Source: Syncephalis plumigaleata
Lineage: Eukaryota; Zoopagomycota; Zoopagomycetes; Zoopagales; Piptocephalidaceae
DNA: 32,627 nucleotides
Reading direction: 5' to 3'
Assembly: GCA_025201365.1 (NCBI GenBank)
Contig: JAIXMF010000136.1
Span: forward strand, 1 to 32,627
Below, one piece after another: positions 74 to 13,429 of the stretch (positions within the stretch are counted from its first letter, which is position 1; each line of letters begins with the position of its first letter). The notes under the pieces were generated by a model. The model saw only the letters and a program-made list of their open reading frames with translations. It was not told where the DNA came from and did not search any database. Made by a program: the position numbers and the translations under genes.

Positions 74-1469
74 TTAGCAAACGTGCGTTAAATCAAGATC
101 ATAGCCAAAGTTCCAAATAACAATATTACGATCTTGTCCAACACTAGATATACGAACATCGTTAGTATATATGATAGTAATAGCCGTAATAACAAATGGT
201 ACTCCTACTACTACTTACCTAATAATTTTTGAGCAATCAAATTGCACATCGAATATCCAACCTTTATGGCCGCGTATCAAGTCGAGTGCCAAATGACCGG
301 TGCGTCGATTCCACACCTTGACCGTAAGATCATAGCTTCCGCTTACGATCCATTGATCGTTAAACCATACGGTACGCACGAGATCAGTGTGTCCTTCAAG
401 TACCTGGAGACACTCGCCCGTTTGCACGTCCCACACACGAATGGTGTGGTCATTGCTACCGCTGACAATGTGTTTGCCGTCGAATCGCACGCAGGCCAAC
501 CCGCGTAGATGTCCGCTAATGACACGGAGACACTTGAGTGTCTTGGCATCCCATACGCGTATTGTGGCATCGCCGCTTACCGACACAATCAGACCGGATT
601 TGATTTGTGCCGCGTTCACCGGTCCGCAGTGTCCCTTGAGTACGCCCTTGCACCGAGCGGTGACACGATCCCACACGCGTACGGTGGTGTCTTTGGAGCA
701 AGTGATTATCAGGTCGTCCTCGATACCAACGTCCAACACGCCCGATGTATGCCCGACCAACTGGTGCACGCGCGTGAAGGTGGGCAAACTCCATAGACAC
801 GCGGTACAATCGCTACTGCCGGTGATCAGCTGGTCACCGTAGCGACGTAGACATAGCACCGATGCCGAGTGTACTTCCACGGCGCGAACACACTCGCGCG
901 AGCGTAGATCCCATTGTCGTATCATTCGATCGCGGGATCCTGTCAATATGCCGTCCTTATCGGAATGCGCGCAATACACACTGTCGGTATGACCTTGTAA
1001 GAATTGCGTCTTAAGATCACCGCGAATCCAGCGATCGTCCAACGTTTTGCGAATACGGTAGAGCTGTTTATAGTGTGTGGGTGCATCCACCGACACAGGC
1101 TCATCATTGCGATACGCCTCATAGTCGCTCGATGTGATTAGCGGTTGTTTTTGCGGAACAGGCATGTTCTGTGTTTGCCAGCCTGGATTACTATAATAGA
1201 TTTGACGCCATAGATTGTTGTCATCGGCGAATCGATGCCAGTTCCGATTCACTTGAGAAGCTGCGCGTAATGTCACCTCATCCGTAAAGCTAAGTAAATA
1301 TAAGGCGAGTTCCGGAGGAAGCCGTCCAATAAAATCTACATTAACATAGCGTGACTGCATAAGTACATAACCACTACATTCCTACGACTATGACTGTGAT
1401 AGTCATTGTGTGTTAGCTTACCAATCTGTGGAAGTACATCAATACCACGGCCACTGTCGTTGTCATGTA
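74..1469 (-). CDS. F-box / WD40-repeat protein, 3' part (gene split by Tc1)
   Basis: Probable substrate-recognition subunit of an SCF ubiquitin ligase (FBXW7/Cdc4/sconB-like architecture). The F-box starts at DFIGRLPPELALYLLSF and is followed by seven WD blades ending IRQWDL, ACLWSL, VRVWDR, IRVWDA, IRVWDV, VKVWNR and IVIWNF. My model on the minus strand is: end of exon 1 at 1469-1422; intron 1421-1336 (GTAAGC to TGTAG, 86 nt); exon 2 1335-219; intron 218-144 (GTAAGT, ACTAAC branch site, CTAG, 75 nt); exon 3 143-74 with stop TAA. The last intron is needed to complete blade 7 (VGQDRNIVIWNFG); without it the frame stops at once. An in-frame ATG at 1360 would give a shorter protein of 403 aa, but in this model that ATG lies inside the first intron. 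The intron 1 acceptor is less certain because several AGs precede it. Joined to 3630-3107, the three exons total 1761 nt, or 586 codons plus a stop. Confidence 0.85.
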
Positions 1470-1471
1470 TA

Positions 1472-1694
1472 CAGTGACTCACACAAGTGCCGGAATGTTT
1501 TGCATTTTTTTACATTTCCCCTCACATTTTTATAACCCTTTGTTTAACCCCATCCATATTACACAATTTAATAAAGCTTTCAATTGTCTATCTAATGATA
1601 TAAAAATAATAATATGTTAATTAATAAAATGTTTAATTTTATACACTTCAAAAATCGTGACTGCATTCCGGCAGTTGTGAGAGCAAATTCAAAA
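1472..1694 (+). repeat. Tc1 left inverted terminal repeat (223 bp)
   Basis: Identical by eye to the reverse complement of 2882-3104. It carries TGCCGGAATG near the outer end (1488-1497) and the same decamer inverted near the inner end (CATTCCGGCA, 1664-1673), each beside a CTCACA/TGTGAG-like flank. These are candidate paired transposase-binding sites. Confidence 0.95.
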
Positions 1695-1833
1695 AAAATT
1701 TATTTTCTAATAAAGTTATTAATATTCTATAAACTGTTATTATTATTGTATATTATAGTTCTTGAACATACGCTGCATCGTTTACATTGCAAAAAATTTA
1801 TTTTTTATTGAGTTTTTATAGTGGAAAGGTAAC

Positions 1834-2865
1834 ATGAAGGCACTATCAGAGAAGAAGGTAAAACGCGCTATTCATGAGCTTAACGCTGGGAAAAGCGCGC
1901 GTCAAGTGGCTAAAATGCTTGATGTACACGCTTCTACGATCGATGCAATATCAAAAAAGCATCTACCGAACCGTGTGAAGTCGAAGGGGGGTAATACTGA
2001 GGTGCTCTCAGAGACGGACAAGCGCTTTGTTGTACGTGCAACGGTGAAAGAGAGGATGAAAAGCGCGGTACAAGTGCGCAAAGCACTCAAAGAACGCTTC
2101 GACATAGCTGTATCGGATGAAACAGTGCGGAGAGCGCTTAGATCCGCCGGGCTAGGGGCTGTAGAGAAAAAGAAAAAACCTCATCTAAGGGAGGTCAATA
2201 TCAGGAAGCGACTTCAATGGGCGTTGGCGCACAAGGATTGGACCGTCGCTGACTGGAGACGCGTCGTTTGGTCAGACGAAACGAAGATAAACCGCTACAA
2301 CTCCGACGGGCGCTCCTGGGTGTGGAAGCGGAGTGAGGAATCGCTTCAACCGCGTGACGTGAAAAGCACGTTCAAGCATGGCGGTGGCGGTGTGATGATT
2401 TGGAGCAGCATTTCGGCCGCTGGACCGGGCTGGCTATGCAGAATTTATGGAACAATGGATAAGGAGCTATATCAAAAGATATTAAAAGACGAATTAGAAA
2501 AAAATATTAATTTATTAATGGAGGAACTGAACATTACTAAGGAGCAGGTCATATTTCAGCAAGACAATGACCCTAAGCATAAGGCCAAATCGACCATGGA
2601 ATACTTCGATAAGCAAGCCTACACGGTCATGGAGTGGCCGCCGCAGTCTCCAGACCTCAATCCTATTGAGAATATGTGGGCTTTCGTGAAAAAGCAACTC
2701 AACGAGTATGATTCGCCACCTGGTGGGATTAATCAACTATTTGATCGGGTTGCCCACGTTTGGTACAACAAAGTCACCAAAGAAGAGTGCCAAAAGTACA
2801 TTGACGGCATGCCAAAGCGAGTACAACAGGTTATTAATGCTAAAGGCAGATGGACCGGGCATTAG
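1834..2865 (+). CDS. Tc1-family transposase (DD34E), 343 aa
   Basis: Cut-and-paste transposase that binds the terminal repeats and integrates at TA. The N-terminal ~110 residues hold two helix-turn-helix-like segments (first about 1-48, around SARQVAKMLDVHASTIDAIS; second about 60-105), followed by a basic linker EKKKKPH. The catalytic triad is D148 (VVWSDETK), D244 (FQQDNDPKH) and E279 (SPDLNPIEN). The 34 residues between the last two give the DD34E spacing of Tc1 proper. A glycine-rich GGGGVMIW stretch and a family-typical C-terminus (VINAKGRWTGH) are present. The length is normal for the family, there are no internal stops, and it begins at the first ATG after the left repeat, so it is probably functional. 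Confidence 0.96.
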   Translation: MKALSEKKVKRAIHELNAGKSARQVAKMLDVHASTIDAISKKHLPNRVKSKGGNTEVLSETDKRFVVRATVKERMKSAVQVRKALKERFDIAVSDETVRRALRSAGLGAVEKKKKPHLREVNIRKRLQWALAHKDWTVADWRRVVWSDETKINRYNSDGRSWVWKRSEESLQPRDVKSTFKHGGGGVMIWSSISAAGPGWLCRIYGTMDKELYQKILKDELEKNINLLMEELNITKEQVIFQQDNDPKHKAKSTMEYFDKQAYTVMEWPPQSPDLNPIENMWAFVKKQLNEYDSPPGGINQLFDRVAHVWYNKVTKEECQKYIDGMPKRVQQVINAKGRWTGH

Positions 2866-2881
2866 CAATAATTTAATAAAA

Positions 2882-3104
2882 TTTTGAATTTGCTCTCACA
2901 ACTGCCGGAATGCAGTCACGATTTTTGAAGTGTATAAAATTAAACATTTTATTAATTAACATATTATTATTTTTATATCATTAGATAGACAATTGAAAGC
3001 TTTATTAAATTGTGTAATATGGATGGGGTTAAACAAAGGGTTATAAAAATGTGAGGGGAAATGTAAAAAAATGCAAAACATTCCGGCACTTGTGTGAGTC
3101 ACTG
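2882..3104 (-). repeat. Tc1 right inverted terminal repeat (223 bp)
   Basis: Mirror copy of the left repeat, with inner TGCCGGAATG at 2903-2912 and outer CATTCCGGCA at 3079-3088. Its minus strand provides the 50 foreign residues and the stop codon that end the disrupted F-box exon frame. Confidence 0.95.
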
Positions 3105-3106
3105 TA

Positions 3107-3333
3107 AATATCTTGTTAATACCGAGACCGCGTAATTGTGGATTACCCCGTTGACTATCTTGCTCTTGTTCTAATCGCTGGGATATTTGCTGAGCATGCG
3201 CACCCTTACGTAGTAGCAGCCTAAGACTAGCGATTGGACTCGACAGTGCACTACGATTATTTGGTGAAGCAGTGAGAGCTGGCGAACTAACCGCCGTGGA
3301 TACATCGCATCTTGCCACATTCATCGATCGTAT

Positions 3334-3366
<33 letters not shown>

Positions 3367-3630
3367 ATAATGGTCGGCCGATAAGGTCCTTGATAAAACT
3401 AATGGACTTGAACGCGATTGAAGGCCTGACAGTGCAGTGACAGGTGAGGCATACTGCAAGTCGTCAAGTCCCGTTCTTATTACCATTGGTGCTGAATAGC
3501 ACATTGAAGCATTGCCGTCAACATTGCCATTCAATTCTCGTCTTTGTTCCTGTTGCAGCAGCAGTTCTTGTTCGTTACCAGCTCGCTGTTGCTTGGACGC
3601 AAACCACCCTTTCATACGCGGTAGTAGCAT
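3107..3630 (-). CDS. Disrupted 5' exon of the F-box/WD40 gene (low-complexity N-terminus)
   Basis: An open frame begins at ATG 3630, with an in-frame TAA five codons upstream. It encodes a Gln/Ser-rich, low-complexity segment with an 11-residue glutamine run (CAA/CAG at 3366-3334) and Ser-Pro-rich stretches. After 174 codons plus two bases the frame meets the Tc1 TA duplication at 3106-3105. It then runs into the inverted repeat and stops at 2956-2958, giving a 224-aa product whose last 50 residues come from the transposon. If the transposon and one TA copy are ignored, the same frame stays open on the far side to a GTAAGC donor at 1421. That phase-1 donor matches the phase-1 acceptor just before the F-box. 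I infer this is the N-terminal exon of the same gene. The alternative is a separate hypothetical gene. Confidence 0.6.
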
Positions 3631-6600
3631 GTTAGACCTGGCTTATTGATACAAATACTACCCAATGTGGCTTTCCCTAATCGAAGCAAACAATGAAATG
3701 TCACCTCGCAAATCGTATGTATAGTAAGTGTAATATAGAGAGAAAGTGAGAGAGGAAGAGAGAGAGGAAGAGAGAGAGAGGGCTAACGGTATAGTATATA
3801 GTTTCTTTAACAATGCGGAGATAGTTAGATGATATAAAGAAAGGAAGAACAGGGAAAAGGAGGTTAACTGGTGGCTAAAGGACAACGATAATGCGAGGCT
3901 GTCCTTGTAAGGCAGGATTCACACACACACACACACAACGCGTGCACAACAAAAGAAATAGTGCAACAAGGGAGCCACTACAACCACCACCAATCTCCTT
4001 GTAAATAGTAGAGTAGTGGTAGGGATACTTTTATTCATATATCGTCAGGCTGTTTGCCCTATGATATAATGAGGCACAGAGTAGCAGTAGTAGCGGTAGC
4101 AGCAGCAGCAGTATTGATAGCAGTTAAGGGTATTACAATGACAGAGTTTCCGTAACACTTGTGTGGCAATCTACCAAAAAGGGGAGAAGGTTGGGCAATA
4201 CCCCAGCACACTTCAAAACCGAATGTGAATCGATAGTTTCACGTATTGACCTGGTGACCGTTGTTTAATTGCTTTGTTAACAAGTGTAGTGTGGCAGTAA
4301 TGTAGTTGTGGAGGTAGTTTTAGAATGTTAAAGAAAACTAGGCGAATAGTATTGCCGATAAGAAGTGATAAATACGAAAGAGCTGGTTACCTGCCAAGCA
4401 AGTGCGTAAGCGGATCTTTACATTGCAGCAGCAACAGTTATTACAGTAATTAGAAGTACTAATACTAGTGTAGGATGATGGCATAATGTGATGTTCTGGT
4501 CAAAATGGTAACATGACCAATCAAGTACCTTGATGAATGAATGGATGAACGAACGAATGAATGTGTGTGGGTGTGCGCGCTCAAGCCTATGCATGTGAGC
4601 AGATCAGCTAAAGTCGAAATAGAGGAAAATGACGGGTTCATGGTGTCAGTCGAGTTTCATAGATTCAGACATGCACAGCATACTATTGTGATATTCTATC
4701 CGCCAATCCTCATCATTGCCATGGCCCTTGTCATCATCATCTACTCTTGTTACGAGTAGAATCGTCATATTAGTAGTTGTCATTACTATGTCATGTCATA
4801 AAATGACTAATTGTTGACTGGTTGTCTATATGAACATACAATTCTATGTTGCTACTACTATTACTACTACTAAGGTGCACGTATTCGTATAGCAATGATG
4901 TTGATGTCTATTCTCATTGGCTATTCTAACGTTGTTTTGATTACTACGCGGTTTAAAACAATAAACAAACAAAACTTGAACTAGTTTATTATTATTGTTG
5001 TTGTTATCACTACTCTCCCTTTAGCGGATAGGCTAGTTCATTGCCATCACGACGTAGCACGGCTAGTATGCAGTTCGTTGTATCAACTGCATCCATGGAA
5101 TCTTCCATTAATTATAGCTCCGAAAACAAGGTGGATAGCGTGGATTACTCTTGTTTCCATCGATGACAGCGATGACATGGCAAGTAAACGTCGAAGATGC
5201 CATCGAGATAGGAGGCGCACAAAGGATAACGGCGATAGTGGTGGGTGATTCTCAAGTGTGTGCGTGTATGCGTGTGTGTGCACAATGCAAGCAACTATAA
5301 CCGACCTTGTATAGCAATGGCATGCTCTCGGTTAAAGGATACTCCACCTTATATCCAACAGTGATCTTTGTACCACTGCCAGAGTAGCTGGCACACGCTT
5401 GGCACGTTATTTAGTAGTTTCCAGTGCTGTTTAGTAGTATGAACAGTCAGATGGTACAATAAATGAGAAAGTAATTAATGAATATCATTATGAATTAGTG
5501 TCTGGAACCATTTATTAGATATTGCCATGCTTTGCCATCATTACGATGTCATTAATACCGACGTCGTGTTTACGTACATCAAGTAAGCAGAAATAAGAAG
5601 CAACGAATATAGTCATGCATACTTGTATAAATGGCTAATTAGATAAGGCTAAAATAAATTCTCCGGCCAGTGCAACCAACCAGGCATTAGGATTGGATTA
5701 TAGCCTATAGGCGTATTACCAAAAAGAGTATATACTAATTGGACTTTGCCAAGCAAGCGGGTATATGGCGATTGCCTGCGATGCATCTCCATCTATAGCC
5801 TCGGTCGGGTTATTGCCGCTCACCACACAATGAGTGAATGGCACTGGAAAGGGGAGAAGGAATAGAAGGGAAACATCACGCGCCCTCCTTTATTGCTTGG
5901 GATTACTACTCGTACTCGTATACGTACTTGTATACGTACACACACACACGCGCGCGCGCACGCATGTCTAAGGCAAATAGTGACGTCAAACGCGATAGTG
6001 CACTAATGTTGACTGCCAATCGGAATAGTTTGTCGAAAATAAGACTGGCGTATCAACTAGTAGATACATCTACATCTATCTCTCTATGTATGTATGTATG
6101 TATGGTTGTTTGTGTACAACCAAAAGCAATCAATTTGGAAAGGCACTTGGCAGGGCAAGCTCCCTGGCCTTGCCTTGATCGTGAAATGAAGGTGACCCGT
6201 TGTATTTCGTGTTCTACGCGATGCCACTCTTAATCCTACTTGCATTGGCGTGACAAGGTAGCTGCTATGCACAATTGAACCAGAACCAGAGGAGCATGAT
6301 GTACATACGTGCATGTCATTATTATTATCATTATTGCTATTCATTAGTTAATTATTTCTCTTTATTTGGTAAGGCTATTTGCTACACTTTTATGAACAAA
6401 ATGTTACGCGAATATATCAATCGTAGTTTGTTGTAGAGACTAAGAATTACAAAACACGCAATTACATGGGCTCACGCCAAAACTGTGTGTATGCTCGGCA
6501 CGCGAGGTCTTCATTATGAAACTGTGGCCACTATCCAGCCATTCATTTTGTTATCAGTGCGCAAGCACGCACACACGTTCATTCATTCATTCATTCATAC

Positions 6601-7668: not shown

Positions 7669-7967
7669 TGTGGCGCCATATCTTGACCTCGTGGCTTAGC
7701 GGTCCAGAATAGGATAGCTACACGTTCAGCGTCGAGAGAAGAAAAAGCAAACGCAAAAGCAAATTTTAATAAAGACGAACAATTCTATCTTTTATCTCTA
7801 CACTACTGTGCTCCAAGTGTCTTACAAGTATTAACCGTGTTAAAGTGTTTTATTTGTCTATACATTCCAACAGTGAGCCACTGCAGCTAACTGAGGTTGT
7901 TGCACGTCACTTTCTGGAATCCCTTGTCCGGCCCCTATCGTGCCCCCTACCAGATAGGGCCGTGACA
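7669..7967 (+). repeat. 5' LTR of Ty3/gypsy element
   Basis: 299 bp, starting TG and ending CA. It should contain the element's promoter and carries AATAAA at 7768-7773 as a candidate polyadenylation signal. It differs from the 3' LTR at one position near its end. Confidence 0.96.
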
Positions 7968-7969
7968 AC

Positions 7970-7987
7970 TGGTGGAGAACCCGGGCG
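7970..7987 (+). promoter_or_regulatory. Primer-binding site of the retrotransposon
   Basis: TGGTGGAGAACCCGGGCG begins two bases after the 5' LTR. The leading TGG pairs with a tRNA 3' CCA, as expected for tRNA-primed reverse transcription. I cannot name the tRNA. No complement of this site was seen in the LTR, which argues against Tf1-style self-priming. Confidence 0.7.
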
Positions 7988-8192
7988 CGTGAAGCGAAAA
8001 CTTACCTTCTAGTAGCAAGCGCGTTCGGTGCCCAACCACATTTCACTAATCTTGTAGGACACGAATCCCGCTCTCTACCTTTCCTATCACATATTACGTT
8101 AACGATCTTTACATTCTACGTTATTACTCCCATTTCCCTTACGTTCTATTATTTCTTATTTATTTCACCTTATCTTACGATCATTGCACATA
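7988..8192 (+). other. Untranslated leader between primer-binding site and gag
   Basis: About 200 bp of pyrimidine-rich sequence with no ORF; probable leader and packaging region of the element's RNA. Confidence 0.6.
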
Positions 8193-9620
8193 ATGACACC
8201 CATATATACACGTGCGTCGGCCCAGCGCGAGGACGAAGCTGCAGGCCCATCCAACGCTCCGGCTGTTCCCGCCGAGGAAGAACCTGAGGCGCCTGTGCCG
8301 ACTTCCCCAGTCGAAGGCGACCCTCCAGTGACGACCGATCCTCAGCCTACCGCAGCGGTATCTCAAGCCGTTGCCACTACTGTTCTCCACCCACAGGCTG
8401 TTAGGACCGCTCCCACTACTATTCCTCCGGAACAGGCCGTCGAGACCGTCCCTACGCCAACCGCCGAAGACGTCACACTTCCTACTGATCCGAATAATCC
8501 GTTCGCTGCTGTACAACAAGCTATTAGTACACAGGATGACCAGTCTCCAAATGCAGTTGCTATGTTTATGGATTACGTAGTCAACCAACAACACAGGTTG
8601 ACGCAGACACAGGCTGTAGCGTTAGCTGAGCAAATGATCATTACGCTTGGCATAACTCGCCCTGATCCGCCCTCACAACCTATCGTCGAAACACCTGGTA
8701 CTGCTCATGTTCCATATCGCTTACCTTCGCAGAACGATCACACACCATCTCCAACTATCCAGATTCGTCGCCCTGTTCGTCGTGAAAGCGTGATGACGCC
8801 AGATGATGAATCAGATCATGACGATGTTGAACTCCCTATATTACCACCGTCGTATCGTCATTCCTACGCACCAAAGATGGAGATACCCATACTAAACGAG
8901 AAGGATGACCCTTTGGAATGGTTAGACGAATTCACCCTTGTCGCAGATATGTCTCCATGGTCCGAAAAGGATCAATGCTGTGCATTAATATATGGTTTAC
9001 GACAGCATGAAAAGGTATGGTGTGCTCGCGCTACGAAACAGTTAGCTTCGTTTAAACCTGGTCTCTATGATGAACTTGTAACTAGTATACGAGGTCATTG
9101 GTATCAAGAAGATCCTAAAGAAGGAGTGTTAGCTACGTTCCATTCTACTCGCAAGCGTCCGAAGGAATCTCTCCTCGACTATGCCGATCGCATCGAGATG
9201 AACGGAATACGCGCCAAAGTCAGCGACGAAACGATTTGGTACTACTTCAAGGTCAACGCCGATGAATCTACTCGTGATCTACTCAAATTATATCTGATTT
9301 CATCACTCGAGGAATTACGATCACGCGGAAAGAGTATCGACAAACTACTTACCCAGTCATCAACGCCTGTTAAACCAAAGTTCGTAGCTGCCGTACAAGA
9401 AGATGATTCTATCCCTTCTAACACCCGATCGACACAGAAGCAATATGACGACCGACGACAACGTCCACGACGCAAGGAGAAGCCACCTTCTGCGCCGCGC
9501 CATCCTTGTGCTCTCTGTGACGATCCAGGACACGCCGCCTATAAGTGTCCTAAGTTATCTGCGGCTCGTGAGTCAGTCACTGGCAAATTGCCTGAGGCTG
9601 CTCAGCCGTCGGAAAACTAA
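8193..9620 (+). CDS. gag: Gag polyprotein of Ty3/gypsy element, 475 aa
   Basis: Capsid/nucleocapsid precursor that packages the element's RNA in cytoplasmic particles. I start at the first ATG (8193, MTPIYTRAS); the frame is open a few codons further up, but only from non-ATG codons. The first ~200 residues are Pro/Ala/Thr-rich. A central retrotransposon-Gag-type region follows (around DDPLEWLDEFTLVADMSPWS, with WYQEDPKEG and STRKRPKESLLDYADRI). Near the C-terminus, after a basic stretch (DDRRQRPRRKEK), is a CCHC zinc knuckle, C-ALC-DDPGH-AAYK-C, at residues 439-452 (CX2CX4HX4C). The frame ends at TAA 9618-9620; pol lies in the -1 frame just downstream. Confidence 0.95.
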   Translation: MTPIYTRASAQREDEAAGPSNAPAVPAEEEPEAPVPTSPVEGDPPVTTDPQPTAAVSQAVATTVLHPQAVRTAPTTIPPEQAVETVPTPTAEDVTLPTDPNNPFAAVQQAISTQDDQSPNAVAMFMDYVVNQQHRLTQTQAVALAEQMIITLGITRPDPPSQPIVETPGTAHVPYRLPSQNDHTPSPTIQIRRPVRRESVMTPDDESDHDDVELPILPPSYRHSYAPKMEIPILNEKDDPLEWLDEFTLVADMSPWSEKDQCCALIYGLRQHEKVWCARATKQLASFKPGLYDELVTSIRGHWYQEDPKEGVLATFHSTRKRPKESLLDYADRIEMNGIRAKVSDETIWYYFKVNADESTRDLLKLYLISSLEELRSRGKSIDKLLTQSSTPVKPKFVAAVQEDDSIPSNTRSTQKQYDDRRQRPRRKEKPPSAPRHPCALCDDPGHAAYKCPKLSAARESVTGKLPEAAQPSEN

Positions 9621-9653
9621 ACCGGGTGCCGATGATTGAGGGTATTGGCACCC
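9611..9653 (+). promoter_or_regulatory. Candidate -1 ribosomal frameshift site with stem-loop (gag/pol)
   Basis: GGAAAAC (9611-9617, gag codons G-GAA-AAC) is followed directly by the gag stop TAA. After a 6-nt spacer there is a perfect 7-bp stem, GGGTGCC (9624-9630) with GGCACCC (9647-9653), and a 16-nt loop. The pol frame is open upstream only to 9596 (TGA at 9593-9595), so a slip must occur in this short overlap. The A-site change AAC to AAA is canonical, but the P-site change GAA to GGA is not a perfect match. The alternative is stop-and-restart at ATG 9632, inside the loop. Confidence 0.6.
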
Positions 9654-12600
9654 CCCTTCTAGCAAATCCCTTATCACAACCAGATGCCGTGATAGGTGCT
9701 GTTACCGCTAACGCACTCTTACAGGCCGGTTTTGTGAACGGACACGCAACAACTATGCTAGTGGACACAGGAGCCCAACAAACGGTAATCTCTAGCGCCT
9801 TATGCTCACGTCTAGGCATAAAGGTTGGACCGAATCGGAACTCGTTTGTTAAGCTAGCAGATGGACGACACGCTCACACTTGCGGATACTGTCAAGTACA
9901 AGTGCAAGTTGCTGATGTGGAACGTCAAGTCGAAGCGATCATACTTCATGCATCTCCATATGATCTCCTATTAGGTATGGATTGGTTAACCGATGCTAGC
10001 GCCACCATAGATTGCGCTGCTGGCACGTTGACAGTCGGCAATCATTCCTTACCTATGAAAATGTCAACCCACTCGCACGGTATACACTTTGTTGCCGTTG
10101 CTGAGAAACGCATTCGCAATAGTCGGCTTAGCAGGAAGCTACAACAATGCTATGATGCTATTCAGCCCCAACTCAACGAAGAGACTCCTACAGCCCTTAT
10201 TTCTGCGGCAGTATCTCAGTCTCCACATGTTGAACTGGTCGAATCGGAACGCAAGTACCTTCTCGACAAGTTGCTACGGGAATTTACGGATCTATTTGCA
10301 GATAATCCTAATAATCCTGGTGCAACTACTAGTATACAACACTTCATTAATACTGGCGACAGTAGACCCATCAACTCACCGCCATATCGCGTAGCTCATC
10401 GTCAACGCGAGATTATCACCAATTCTGTTAATGATATGCTCAAAAACGGAATCATTGAACGCTCTTTCAGCCCTTGGTCTTCCCCTGTTGTTCTTGTTGG
10501 TAAGAAGGATGGAGGCGCACGATTTTGTGTAGATTACCGTAGGCTTAACGAAGTAACCAAGAAGGATTCTTATCCTACTACGCGAGTAGATGACGCCTTG
10601 GACATGCTGTCTGGCGCTCGTTGGTTTACTACGTTAGATTTAGCTTCAGGTTATTGGCAAGTCAAAATGAACGTTAAAGATAGAGAAAAGACTGCTTTTA
10701 TTACACACGATGGTCTATATCAATTCAAAGTCATGCCTTTTGGACTTTGCAATGCACCAGCTACGTTCCAACGTCTTATGAACGAAGTGCTGGCTGGATT
10801 GAAATGGCGTACCTGCATCGTGTACCTGGACGATATTATCGTTTATGGACGGACGTTCGAGGAACATCTAGAACGTCTACGAGAAGTCTTTCAACGCTTA
10901 CGTACGGCTGGCCTACGACTAAAGAAGAGCAAGTGTCACTTCGGTCATCAAGAGATTGCTTACCTTGGTCATTTGGTCACTGCCAACGGTGTTAAGCCGG
11001 ATCCCAACAAAATCGCCGCTGTTCATCAATTTCCTCTTCCTGTAGATGTCCGTGGATGTAAAAGCTTCTTAGGTCTTGCTTCCTATTATAGACGATTCAT
11101 TCCTAATTTCTCTGAGAAAGCTGAACCGTTACATCGTCTCACTAAGAAGAACACGCCATTTACCTGGACCGATGCTCAACAAGCTGCCTTCGATCAGTTA
11201 CGTCAAGCCCTTACCGATGATGTTGTTCTCACTTACCCCGATCTTTCCAAGCCTTTCCGAATTGAGACCGATGCCTCTTCTACTGGTATTGGTGCCGTCA
11301 TTTCTCAACTCGTGAACGACCAATGGAAGCCTATCGCATACGCCAGCCGTGCTCTCAACCAAGCTGAACGCAACTACTCAGCCACGGAAGGTGAATGCTT
11401 AGCGATCGTGTGGGCCATCGACAAATTTCGACCATACATTTACGGTGGTGAATTCACTGTCGTTACCGATCACTCCGCCTTACGCTGGTTAATGTCTCGT
11501 CCAAATCCAACCGGTAGACTAGGTAGGTGGGTGCTGCGATTACAAGAGTATTGCCCCACTATCGAGTACCGTCGAGGCACTGCCAACTCCAACGCCGATG
11601 CCTTGTCGCGAGATCCCTTGCCATGGCCGGAACTAGTCGCTCAAGCCGAAGAAGATAAAGCTGTCGAAATCATGTCCACGGCCGCTGTACCATTATTACC
11701 TACGGCAGACGAATGGCTCCAGGCACAACGCAGTGAGAACGCCACTTGTGACATCTACGGTTATTTGTCGAAAGGTAACGATCATCTTATCATGATGAAT
11801 GAACCTACACGACGTTCGATCAAGAAACGCGCTCGAAGTTATCGCCTCGTCGACGGTCGATTGATGCGCCGAAAGATGGAAGAAGATCAAGAAGTACTAT
11901 TGGACGTAGTACCGAAACAGTTCCAACCCGTTGTTCTATATCATAATCATGATCAAGAATTATCCGGCCATCTCGGTAGATATCGCACATATAAACGAAT
12001 TCGACAAAAGTACTGGTGGTCGAACTTACATAGTGACGTTAGAGATTATGTAGCAACTTGTGTGAGATGCCAGAAGCAACGACGCATCACACAGCGTTCT
12101 GGCTTGCTACAGTCTCTGCCGGTACCCGAGAAGCCGTTCGACTTTATCGCTATCGACCTAATGGGACCGTTTACTGAGTCAGAGTATGGTAATAAGTATG
12201 TTGCCGTATGTTGCGATTACACAACTCGATGGATCGAAGCTGCTGCGATACCGGACGCTACAGCCGAGACTACCGTCAAGTTCCTTATGAATAACATTAT
12301 CGCTCGACATGGAATGCCCCGTGTACTCCTCACAGACGGAGGTACCAACTTCACGTCTGGTCTCACAGCAGGAATCGCGCGCCGCCTAGGCATTCGTCAG
12401 CGAATTACATCAGCACGACGTCCACAAACTGACGGTCTCGTTGAACGTTTCAATCATACGCTAGCTTCAATGATTGCCAAGTTCACTAACGACTTCGAAA
12501 CCGACTGGGACAAGTACTTACCTTTACTGTTGTTCGCCTATCGCACTACACCGCAATCGTCTGCTGGTCAGACGCCCTTCAACCTACTCTACGGCCGCGA

Positions 12601-13174
12601 AGCCACTCAACCATTAGAAGTCGCTGTTAACAACATGCCCACGACAAAAGCACGATTCAATAAGCGAACTGAAGAATACGAAGAGTACGTGAAGGACTTA
12701 CAATTACGGTTGAATGATGTACGAGAACGAGCTCGCCTCATGATCGAAGCCGCCCAACGCCGTCAATCAGCGCGTTATAACAAAGGAAGAAGAAGAGAAG
12801 CATTCAATGAGGGTGATTTGGTATGGTTAGAAGAAACGCTGTTGAAAGGATCTAAATTAAAGAAGATGAAGGAACGTATACGTGGACCCTTCCGAGTCGT
12901 AGAGCAGACGTCAGCTGTCAATTACAGACTATGTGATCTCGACACAAAAAGGACATTCCCCGCACACGCTGATCGAATTATTCCTTTACACTCTCGTCCA
13001 CAACATTTATTATTATCCCCCACGGCCAGTGAGCCAGTTTCAGTATTATCATTAACTAACACTTTATTATTATCTAGCGAAGACCAACCTAGTATGTTGG
13101 CGGGACGCTCAACACTCGAAGAGGGAGTGATGTGGCGCCATATCTTGACCTCGTGGCTTAGCGGTCCAGAATAG
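9626..13174 (+). CDS. pol: Pol polyprotein of Ty3/gypsy element (PR-RT-RNaseH-IN)
   Basis: Enzymes for polyprotein cleavage, reverse transcription and integration. Residues are numbered from the GTG at 9626; the first ATG is 9632. Aspartic protease: LVDTGAQQT (D47). Reverse transcriptase: SPWSSPVVLVGKKDGG, FMPFGLCNAPATF-like block, and YLDD at 400-403. RNase H begins at ETDASSTGIGA (D549). The integrase has an HHCC zinc finger (HDQELSGH ... CVRC), then D844 (AIDLMGPF), D904 (LLTDGGTNF) and E940 (GLVERFNH), with 35 residues between the last two (DD35E). A GPF-containing module (RGPFRVVE) follows. No chromodomain is visible. The frame extends 44 nt into the 3' LTR. It is probably made as a Gag-Pol fusion by -1 frameshifting and looks fully intact. 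Confidence 0.95.
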   Translation: MPMIEGIGTPLLANPLSQPDAVIGAVTANALLQAGFVNGHATTMLVDTGAQQTVISSALCSRLGIKVGPNRNSFVKLADGRHAHTCGYCQVQVQVADVERQVEAIILHASPYDLLLGMDWLTDASATIDCAAGTLTVGNHSLPMKMSTHSHGIHFVAVAEKRIRNSRLSRKLQQCYDAIQPQLNEETPTALISAAVSQSPHVELVESERKYLLDKLLREFTDLFADNPNNPGATTSIQHFINTGDSRPINSPPYRVAHRQREIITNSVNDMLKNGIIERSFSPWSSPVVLVGKKDGGARFCVDYRRLNEVTKKDSYPTTRVDDALDMLSGARWFTTLDLASGYWQVKMNVKDREKTAFITHDGLYQFKVMPFGLCNAPATFQRLMNEVLAGLKWRTCIVYLDDIIVYGRTFEEHLERLREVFQRLRTAGLRLKKSKCHFGHQEIAYLGHLVTANGVKPDPNKIAAVHQFPLPVDVRGCKSFLGLASYYRRFIPNFSEKAEPLHRLTKKNTPFTWTDAQQAAFDQLRQALTDDVVLTYPDLSKPFRIETDASSTGIGAVISQLVNDQWKPIAYASRALNQAERNYSATEGECLAIVWAIDKFRPYIYGGEFTVVTDHSALRWLMSRPNPTGRLGRWVLRLQEYCPTIEYRRGTANSNADALSRDPLPWPELVAQAEEDKAVEIMSTAAVPLLPTADEWLQAQRSENATCDIYGYLSKGNDHLIMMNEPTRRSIKKRARSYRLVDGRLMRRKMEEDQEVLLDVVPKQFQPVVLYHNHDQELSGHLGRYRTYKRIRQKYWWSNLHSDVRDYVATCVRCQKQRRITQRSGLLQSLPVPEKPFDFIAIDLMGPFTESEYGNKYVAVCCDYTTRWIEAAAIPDATAETTVKFLMNNIIARHGMPRVLLTDGGTNFTSGLTAGIARRLGIRQRITSARRPQTDGLVERFNHTLASMIAKFTNDFETDWDKYLPLLLFAYRTTPQSSAGQTPFNLLYGREATQPLEVAVNNMPTTKARFNKRTEEYEEYVKDLQLRLNDVRERARLMIEAAQRRQSARYNKGRRREAFNEGDLVWLEETLLKGSKLKKMKERIRGPFRVVEQTSAVNYRLCDLDTKRTFPAHADRIIPLHSRPQHLLLSPTASEPVSVLSLTNTLLLSSEDQPSMLAGRSTLEEGVMWRHILTSWLSGPE
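13118..13130 (+). promoter_or_regulatory. Polypurine tract
   Basis: GAAGAGGGAG followed by TGA abuts the 3' LTR. It is the probable primer for plus-strand DNA synthesis and also encodes pol residues. Confidence 0.65.
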
Positions 13175-13429
13175 GATAGCTACACGTTCAGCGTCGAGAG
13201 AAGAAAAAGCAAACGCAAAAGCAAATTTTAATAAAGACGAACAATTCTATCTTTTATCTCTACACTACTGTGCTCCAAGTGTCTTACAAGTATTAACCGT
13301 GTTAAAGTGTTTTATTTGTCTATACATTCCAACAGTGAGCCACTGCAGCTAACTGAGGTTGTTGCACGTCACTTTCTGGAATCCCTTGTCCGGCCCCTAT
13401 CGTGCCCCCTACCAGATAAGGCCGTGACA
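13131..13429 (+). repeat. 3' LTR of Ty3/gypsy element
   Basis: 299 bp, 298 of 299 identical to the 5' LTR, with AATAAA at 13230-13235. Its first 44 bp are also coding: the pol frame enters the LTR and stops at 13172-13174. Confidence 0.96.

What the first reader, a model, noticed from the sequence alone, without database searches (positions are those of the whole stretch)
1422..3630. Tc1 insertion splits the first exon of an F-box/WD40 gene
The minus-strand frame from 3630 reaches the Tc1 TA duplication, and the same frame resumes on the other side at 1469 with no stop, ending in ...GRGIDVLPQI at a GTAAGC donor. Using the TGTAG acceptor at 1336 gives a phase-1 join straight into DFIGRLPPELAL, the F-box, and makes the three-exon total divisible by three (586 aa). 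With the transposon present the product ends after 174 native plus 50 transposon residues. The allele is probably null or N-terminally truncated, and a heterokaryon or heterozygote could carry an intact copy.
Basis: partly seen in the sequence, partly recalled or inferred. Interest (0 to 1): 0.7.

Follow-up and report, generated by a model that had tools for sequence, protein, structure and literature searches.

The report
Jumping gene splits one fungal allele
In one of the two versions of a fungal gene for a protein-tagging adaptor (F-box/WD40), a recently active Tc1-type jumping gene has landed inside the coding sequence; the other version has the undisturbed landing site, but in the assembly it carries a different small lesion, so it is open whether the fungus has any fully intact copy.

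Summary
A 1,633-bp Tc1 element (window 1472-3104; TA duplications 1470-1471 and 3105-3106; identical 223-bp inverted repeats; open DD34E transposase frame) sits in exon 1 of a three-exon, 586-codon F-box/WD40 gene on the minus strand. The window is one whole contig (C42) of a 32.6-Mb assembly, taken to be fungal. Contig C57 looks like its other haplotype: collinear, 238 mismatches in 25,139 aligned bases, with the exact empty site (one TA) and the exon-1 frame open across it. The insertion is therefore most likely heterozygous. It is also recent: two further copies found differ by one base in 1,633, and one of these has its own uninterrupted second copy. Allele comparison supports exon 1 as coding: its only length change is 6 bp (two glutamines), and changes over the whole CDS are 12 synonymous to 5 non-synonymous. 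The in-frame ATG inside intron 1, the alternative start, is ATA on C57. New here: the empty-site allele is not intact as assembled. A one-base deletion at codon 500 cuts off the last two WD40 repeats; without reads I cannot tell a real lesion from a consensus error. The kind of event is ordinary; possible damage to both alleles makes it mildly interesting.

The parts
1472..3104 (+). Tc1-like element, 1,633 bp, transposase gene opposite in strand to the F-box gene
   Evidence: absent at C57:346762-346763
1472..1694 (.). left 223-bp terminal inverted repeat, with an inner inverted copy of its outer motif about 190 bp in
2882..3104 (.). right 223-bp terminal inverted repeat, identical to the left one
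1834..2865 (+). open DD34E Tc1 transposase frame, 343 aa
1470..1471 (.). TA target-site duplication, left
3105..3106 (.). TA target-site duplication, right
3107..3630 (-). 5' part of coding exon 1 of the F-box/WD40 gene (ATG at 3630-3628, polyglutamine tract near 3335-3366)
1422..1471 (-). 3' part of exon 1, up to donor GTAAGC
1336..1421 (-). intron 1, 86 bp; contains the in-frame ATG at 1360-1358 that is ATA on C57
219..1335 (-). exon 2: F-box and most of the WD40 repeats
144..218 (-). intron 2, donor GTAAGT
74..143 (-). exon 3 with stop codon: end of the last WD40 repeat
410..410 (-). place of the one-base deletion carried by the C57 allele (codon 500)
3204..3209 (-). cryptic donor GTAAGG, in phase with acceptor 1336 (hypothetical bypass of the element)

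Best explanation
The window is one haplotype of a fungus with two (diploid, dikaryotic or heterokaryotic). A Tc1 element with an open transposase frame, recently mobile in this genome, inserted at a TA in the first coding exon of an F-box/WD40 gene (a putative SCF ubiquitin-ligase substrate receptor). The element is antisense to the gene; translation from the native start would give 175 native and 49 element-encoded residues and neither F-box nor WD40 domain, so this allele most likely makes no working receptor. Shown: element anatomy, splice-compatible frame, empty site on C57, near-identical copies. Inferred: allelism of C42 and C57 (collinearity, no read depth), loss of function, SCF role, transposase activity.
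For: Both flanks lie side by side on C57 with a single TA. C42 is collinear with C57:345294-372127, with 238 mismatches in 25,139 aligned bases. The two other full copies found differ from the window copy by one base in 1,633. Uninterrupted second copies exist for the C42 site (C57) and the C1 site (C370); the C77 copy has a paralogous empty site on C13. Transposase domains and DD34E. Exon 1 behaves as coding: 0 of 2,000 resamples kept 191 codons open; 5 synonymous to 4 non-synonymous changes in exon 1 and 12 to 5 over the whole CDS (binomial p = 4e-5 for the whole CDS, 0.037 for exon 1 alone); its only indel is 6 bp.
Against: No transcript data, and no orthologue was found outside this genome (a bacterial and archaeal collection), so exon 1 rests on frame, splice signals and allele comparison. 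For exon 1 alone the selection signal is weak (p = 0.037, not corrected for testing each exon). The C57 allele also carries a frame break, which would fit a gene no longer under strong constraint. Bypass by a cryptic splice (3209 to 1336, 535 aa) or by the ATG at 1360 cannot be excluded.
Confidence: 0.9

Rival explanations
1. Compound lesion: both haplotypes are broken, one by the Tc1, the other by a real one-base deletion at the end of the fifth WD40 repeat, so the individual has no full-length copy and the gene is dispensable or being lost. (Not exclusive of the main explanation.)
For: C57 lacks one base at window 410, codon 500, in a non-homopolymer context; predicted product 519 aa with an altered end and without the sixth and seventh repeats. 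In the same comparison the five other ORF ranges checked (Zn2Cys6 factor, UBC exon and others, about 5.4 kb in all) have no indel. In 2 of 2 other haplotype pairs compared, ORFs of 609/610 and 560/560 codons stay open; but these two were picked because one search had already shown long frames in both, so that control is weak.
Against: One base in one assembly; no reads. By my reading of the list, six other one-base indels outside runs of four or more of one base lie in the non-coding sequence of the same pair, so errors or neutral indels of this kind occur. Exon 2 keeps 6 synonymous to 1 non-synonymous change, which speaks against long neglect.
Confidence: 0.3
2. The insertion allele is only weakened: the element is bypassed by splicing from the GTAAGG at 3209 to the acceptor at 1336 (535 aa, F-box and WD40 kept), or translation starts at the ATG at 1360 on a transcript begun in or near the element.
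For: The 3209 donor is the only GTRAG among 32 GT dinucleotides scanned and is in phase; the ATG at 1360 is in frame with the F-box and is ATA on C57.
Against: 16 of the 32 GT dinucleotides are in phase and open, so phase alone is a coin toss. The frame before 1470 runs into a stop at 1512 without an ATG. A promoter in the element was not looked for.
Confidence: 0.15
3. The gene starts at the ATG at 1360; the upstream frame is not coding and the element lies in a 5' flank or leader.
For: The ORF is open from 1381 and has an ATG eight codons before DFIGRLPPEL.
Against: The C57 allele has ATA there; the upstream frame is open for about 190 codons, changes length only by two codons and joins in phase at consensus splice sites. 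A paralogue on C279 has an open frame running some 35 residues upstream of its F-box.
Confidence: 0.05
4. C42 and C57 are recent segmental duplicates in a haploid, not alleles.
For: Ploidy is not known, and I saw no read depth.
Against: The whole of C42 is collinear with the inside of C57. Several WD40 exons occur as near-identical pairs on a large and a small contig (C112/C349, C329/C102, C362/C117; lengths), as an assembly of two haplotypes would give; the C1 Tc1 locus has its own second copy on C370.
Confidence: 0.05

Closest known systems
Tc1-like elements (Tc1/mariner superfamily, DD34E; Sleeping Beauty, Tc1 of C. elegans)
   Same: TA target, long inverted repeats, HTH plus DDE_3 transposase, DD34E triad; a length of about 1.6 kb and repeats beginning CAGT are usual for such elements (recalled)
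   Different: The inner motif of each 223-bp repeat is inverted relative to the outer one, whereas Sleeping Beauty has direct repeats there (recalled); only three near-identical copies found
F-box/WD40 substrate receptors of SCF ubiquitin ligases (FBXW7/Cdc4, beta-TrCP)
   Same: F-box followed by WD40 repeats; best natural F-box matches among the 60 of 460 PDB sequences shown are FBXW7 (7t1y, 2.4e-85) and the beta-TrCP family (6wnx 5.1e-67, 1p22 4.9e-66); two chains named Tako8 (designed propellers, recalled) score higher
   Different: Seven WD40 repeats by my count, a polyglutamine-bearing N-terminal exon; orthology to either not established
TE-linked differences between haplotypes of dikaryotic fungi (e.g. 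Puccinia striiformis 104E, PMC12129025)
   Same: Haplotype differences shaped by structural variation linked to transposable elements (abstract and passages seen)
   Different: Here a single coding-exon hit by a young Tc1, with a possible second lesion on the other haplotype; organism unnamed

Membership tests
Tc1-like elements | TA target-site duplication | tested here: met
   TA at 1470-1471 and 3105-3106; single TA at the empty site
Tc1-like elements | terminal inverted repeats | tested here: met
   223 bp, no mismatch
Tc1-like elements | HTH_Tnp_Tc3_2 and DDE_3 transposase with DD34E | tested here: met
   Pfam 3.2e-16 and 6.6e-16; D148, D244, E279 with 34 residues between the last two
Tc1-like elements | transposition activity | tested here: inconclusive
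   three copies at most one base apart and uninterrupted second copies of two sites imply recent movement; no assay
F-box/WD40 SCF receptors | F-box domain | tested here: met
   PF12937 5e-11, 42.6 bits against a cut-off of 24.3
F-box/WD40 SCF receptors | WD40 propeller after the F-box | tested here: met
   PF00400 9.3e-44, six stretches in the exon-2 ORF; last repeat completed by exon 3
F-box/WD40 SCF receptors | binding of Skp1 and of a substrate | not testable with these tools
   needs protein work
Heterozygous insertion | allelic empty site in the same individual | tested here: met
   C57:345294-347954; allelism inferred from collinearity, no read depth

The most novel reading that the evidence does not exclude
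The individual carries no full-length copy of this F-box/WD40 gene: the two haplotypes were hit independently, one by a young Tc1 in exon 1 and the other by a frameshift in the propeller. It would be a natural double disruption of a putative SCF receptor, seen while the gene is still otherwise conserved.
Probability: 0.3. Interest if true: 0.45.

Novelty: new member of a known kind. Interest (0 to 1): 0.3.

Why it matters
It is a clean case, with filled and empty sites in one assembly, of a young Tc1 creating a probably heterozygous coding disruption in a fungus. The two haplotypes together offer a direct test of whether heterokaryosis or diploidy shelters such lesions. It also shows that an annotation made on one haplotype alone would mis-call this gene.

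Tried and rejected
Downstream start at ATG 1360 as the only gene model: rejected because C57 has ATA there. Element in an intron or intergenic: rejected by the open frame, the in-phase splice sites and allele comparison. Orthologues outside this genome: one genome-contig scan with the 215-1381 ORF found none (the collection is bacterial and archaeal, so this says little). One viral-contig scan with the transposase found none. Naming the organism: one paper search on the contig count gave one unrelated fern paper; not pursued. Paper searches on Tc1 insertion polymorphism and on splicing over Tc1 gave listings only; by title and abstract start none of the listed papers is on this locus, which is not proof that none exists. 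Pfam on kinase-like ORFs of larger elements with related inverted repeats: no match. In one search I also compared five relatives of the transposase over 939 bases: three were identical, two differed at 709 and 710 places and were probably out of register; I drop that comparison. Of the fifteen one-base indels, one (22291) sits at my block border and is an artefact.

Full report
WHAT IS THERE. The window is the whole of contig C42 of a 32,639,069-base, 383-contig assembly. It holds ORFs with a fungal Zn2Cys6 cluster and a fungal transcription-factor domain, so the organism is taken to be a fungus; its name is not known. At 1472-3104 lies a 1,633-bp element with 223-bp perfect terminal inverted repeats and TA on both sides. 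Its plus-strand ORF 1834-2865 encodes a 343-aa transposase with HTH_Tnp_Tc3_2 and DDE_3, similar to Sleeping Beauty (PDB 5cr4, 3.2e-47), with D148, D244 and E279 spaced as DD34E. It is a Tc1-like element.

THE GENE. On the minus strand the frame starts at ATG 3630, reaches the TA at 3106-3105, and continues on the other side to a GTAAGC donor at 1421. The acceptor at 1336 leads in phase into exon 2 with an F-box (PF12937, 5e-11) and WD40 repeats (PF00400, 9.3e-44). A second intron (218-144) and exon 3 complete the last repeat, with a stop at 76-74: 586 codons. I count seven WD40 repeats.

THE EMPTY SITE. The left flank (1-1471) matches C57:345294-346763 at 99% and the right flank (3107-4300) C57:346764-347954 at 98%; they are adjacent there with a single TA. 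C42 aligns along its length with C57:345294-372127, with 238 mismatches in 25,139 aligned bases. Three large differences remain: the Tc1 and a Ty3/gypsy element (7669-13429, TSD GTAAA, LTRs 99.67% alike over 300 bp) only on C42, and a 1,630-bp palindromic TA-flanked element only on C57. C42 and C57 are therefore most simply two haplotypes. Read depth was not available.

AGE AND ACTIVITY. Two other full copies were found, on C77 and C1, each differing from the window copy at the same single base of 1,633, and so identical to each other; the C1 copy is split by a 6.1-kb LTR element with identical 184-bp LTRs and a 5-bp duplication. The C1 site has an uninterrupted second copy on C370, with flanks 98% and 99% alike over 400 bp each side; it lies in a TA-rich tract, so the exact joint is not fixed there. 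The C77 copy lies in repeated DNA, where C13 shows a paralogous empty site (flanks 88% and 92%). The DNA search for the inverted repeat listed 41 matches (a lower bound; 40 of 52 candidates scored): six belong to these three copies and 35 are weaker relatives, 70-89% alike. The family has moved recently; present activity is inferred, not shown.

IS EXON 1 REALLY CODING? Probably, by four tests that need no transcripts. (a) 0 of 2,000 first-order resamples kept 191 codons open. (b) The only length difference between alleles in exon 1 is 6 bp in the polyglutamine tract, whereas a 4-bp and a 1-bp indel occur upstream at 3919 and 3955. (c) Nucleotide changes between alleles, counted base by base, are 5 synonymous to 4 non-synonymous in exon 1 (one codon has two changes, counted one each), 6 to 1 in exon 2 and 1 to 0 in exon 3; binomial p is 0.037 for exon 1, 0.0008 for exon 2, 0.20 for exon 3 and 4e-5 overall. 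Exon 1 alone is thus only weakly constrained. (d) The alternative start, ATG 1360 inside intron 1, is ATA on C57. A paralogue at C279:13860-15673 also has an open frame upstream of its F-box.

AGAINST THE SIMPLE STORY. The empty-site allele is not intact as assembled. Relative to the window allele it lacks one base at window 410 (codon 500 of 586, between the end of the fifth and the start of the sixth WD40 repeat) and would end after 519 residues. Of 42 indels between C42 and C57, two fall in the ORF ranges that I marked (about 7.1 kb): this one and the polyglutamine tract; the five other ORF ranges, about 5.4 kb, had none. On the other side, it is a single base without reads, and by my reading six other one-base indels outside homopolymer runs lie in non-coding sequence of the same pair. 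I put a real compound lesion at about three in ten.

CONSEQUENCE FOR THE ALLELE. Loss of the F-box and WD40 part from the native start is direct from the sequence; loss of function is inferred. Two bypasses can be written down: donor GTAAGG at 3209 to acceptor 1336 (535 aa), the only GTRAG among 32 GTs, though 16 of 32 are in phase and open; and ATG 1360. The frame before 1470 inside the element meets a stop at 1512 with no ATG.

PLACE AMONG KNOWN THINGS. This is an ordinary kind of event: a young Tc1 causing a probably heterozygous coding disruption. TE-shaped haplotype differences in a dikaryotic fungus are described (PMC12129025, abstract and passages). DD34E as the mark of Tc1-like elements is stated in the abstract start of PMC4054914 seen in a listing. 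The feature of interest is the possible second lesion on the other haplotype, which reads would settle.

Noticed in passing
C57:360180-361809, insertion point at window 22290: A 1,630-bp almost perfect palindrome (95.7% self-complementary) flanked by TA, ends CAGTGGGGG, no ORF over 77 aa, present only on the C57 haplotype: a fold-back, non-autonomous element of Tc1/mariner type by its ends.
   Followed up: partly
window 7669-13429: Ty3/gypsy element present only on the C42 haplotype, LTRs 99.67% alike, 5-bp duplication GTAAA.
   Followed up: partly
L048 (C112:1521744-1526859) and L049 (C353:24421-29450): About 5-kb elements with inverted repeats of at least 1.3 kb, parts of which are 72-81% like the Tc1 repeats; inside are ORFs with kinase-like motifs (recalled motif; two C112 ORFs had no Pfam match). 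By eye, similar translated text recurs near window 30.8-31.0 kb.
   Followed up: partly
L045/L046 (C1:1859940-1866054): LTR element with identical 184-bp LTRs nested in a Tc1 copy; its long ORF contains a stretch that reads like a dUTPase (recalled, not searched).
   Followed up: no
window 3335-3366: Polyglutamine tract differs by two codons between haplotypes.
   Followed up: yes
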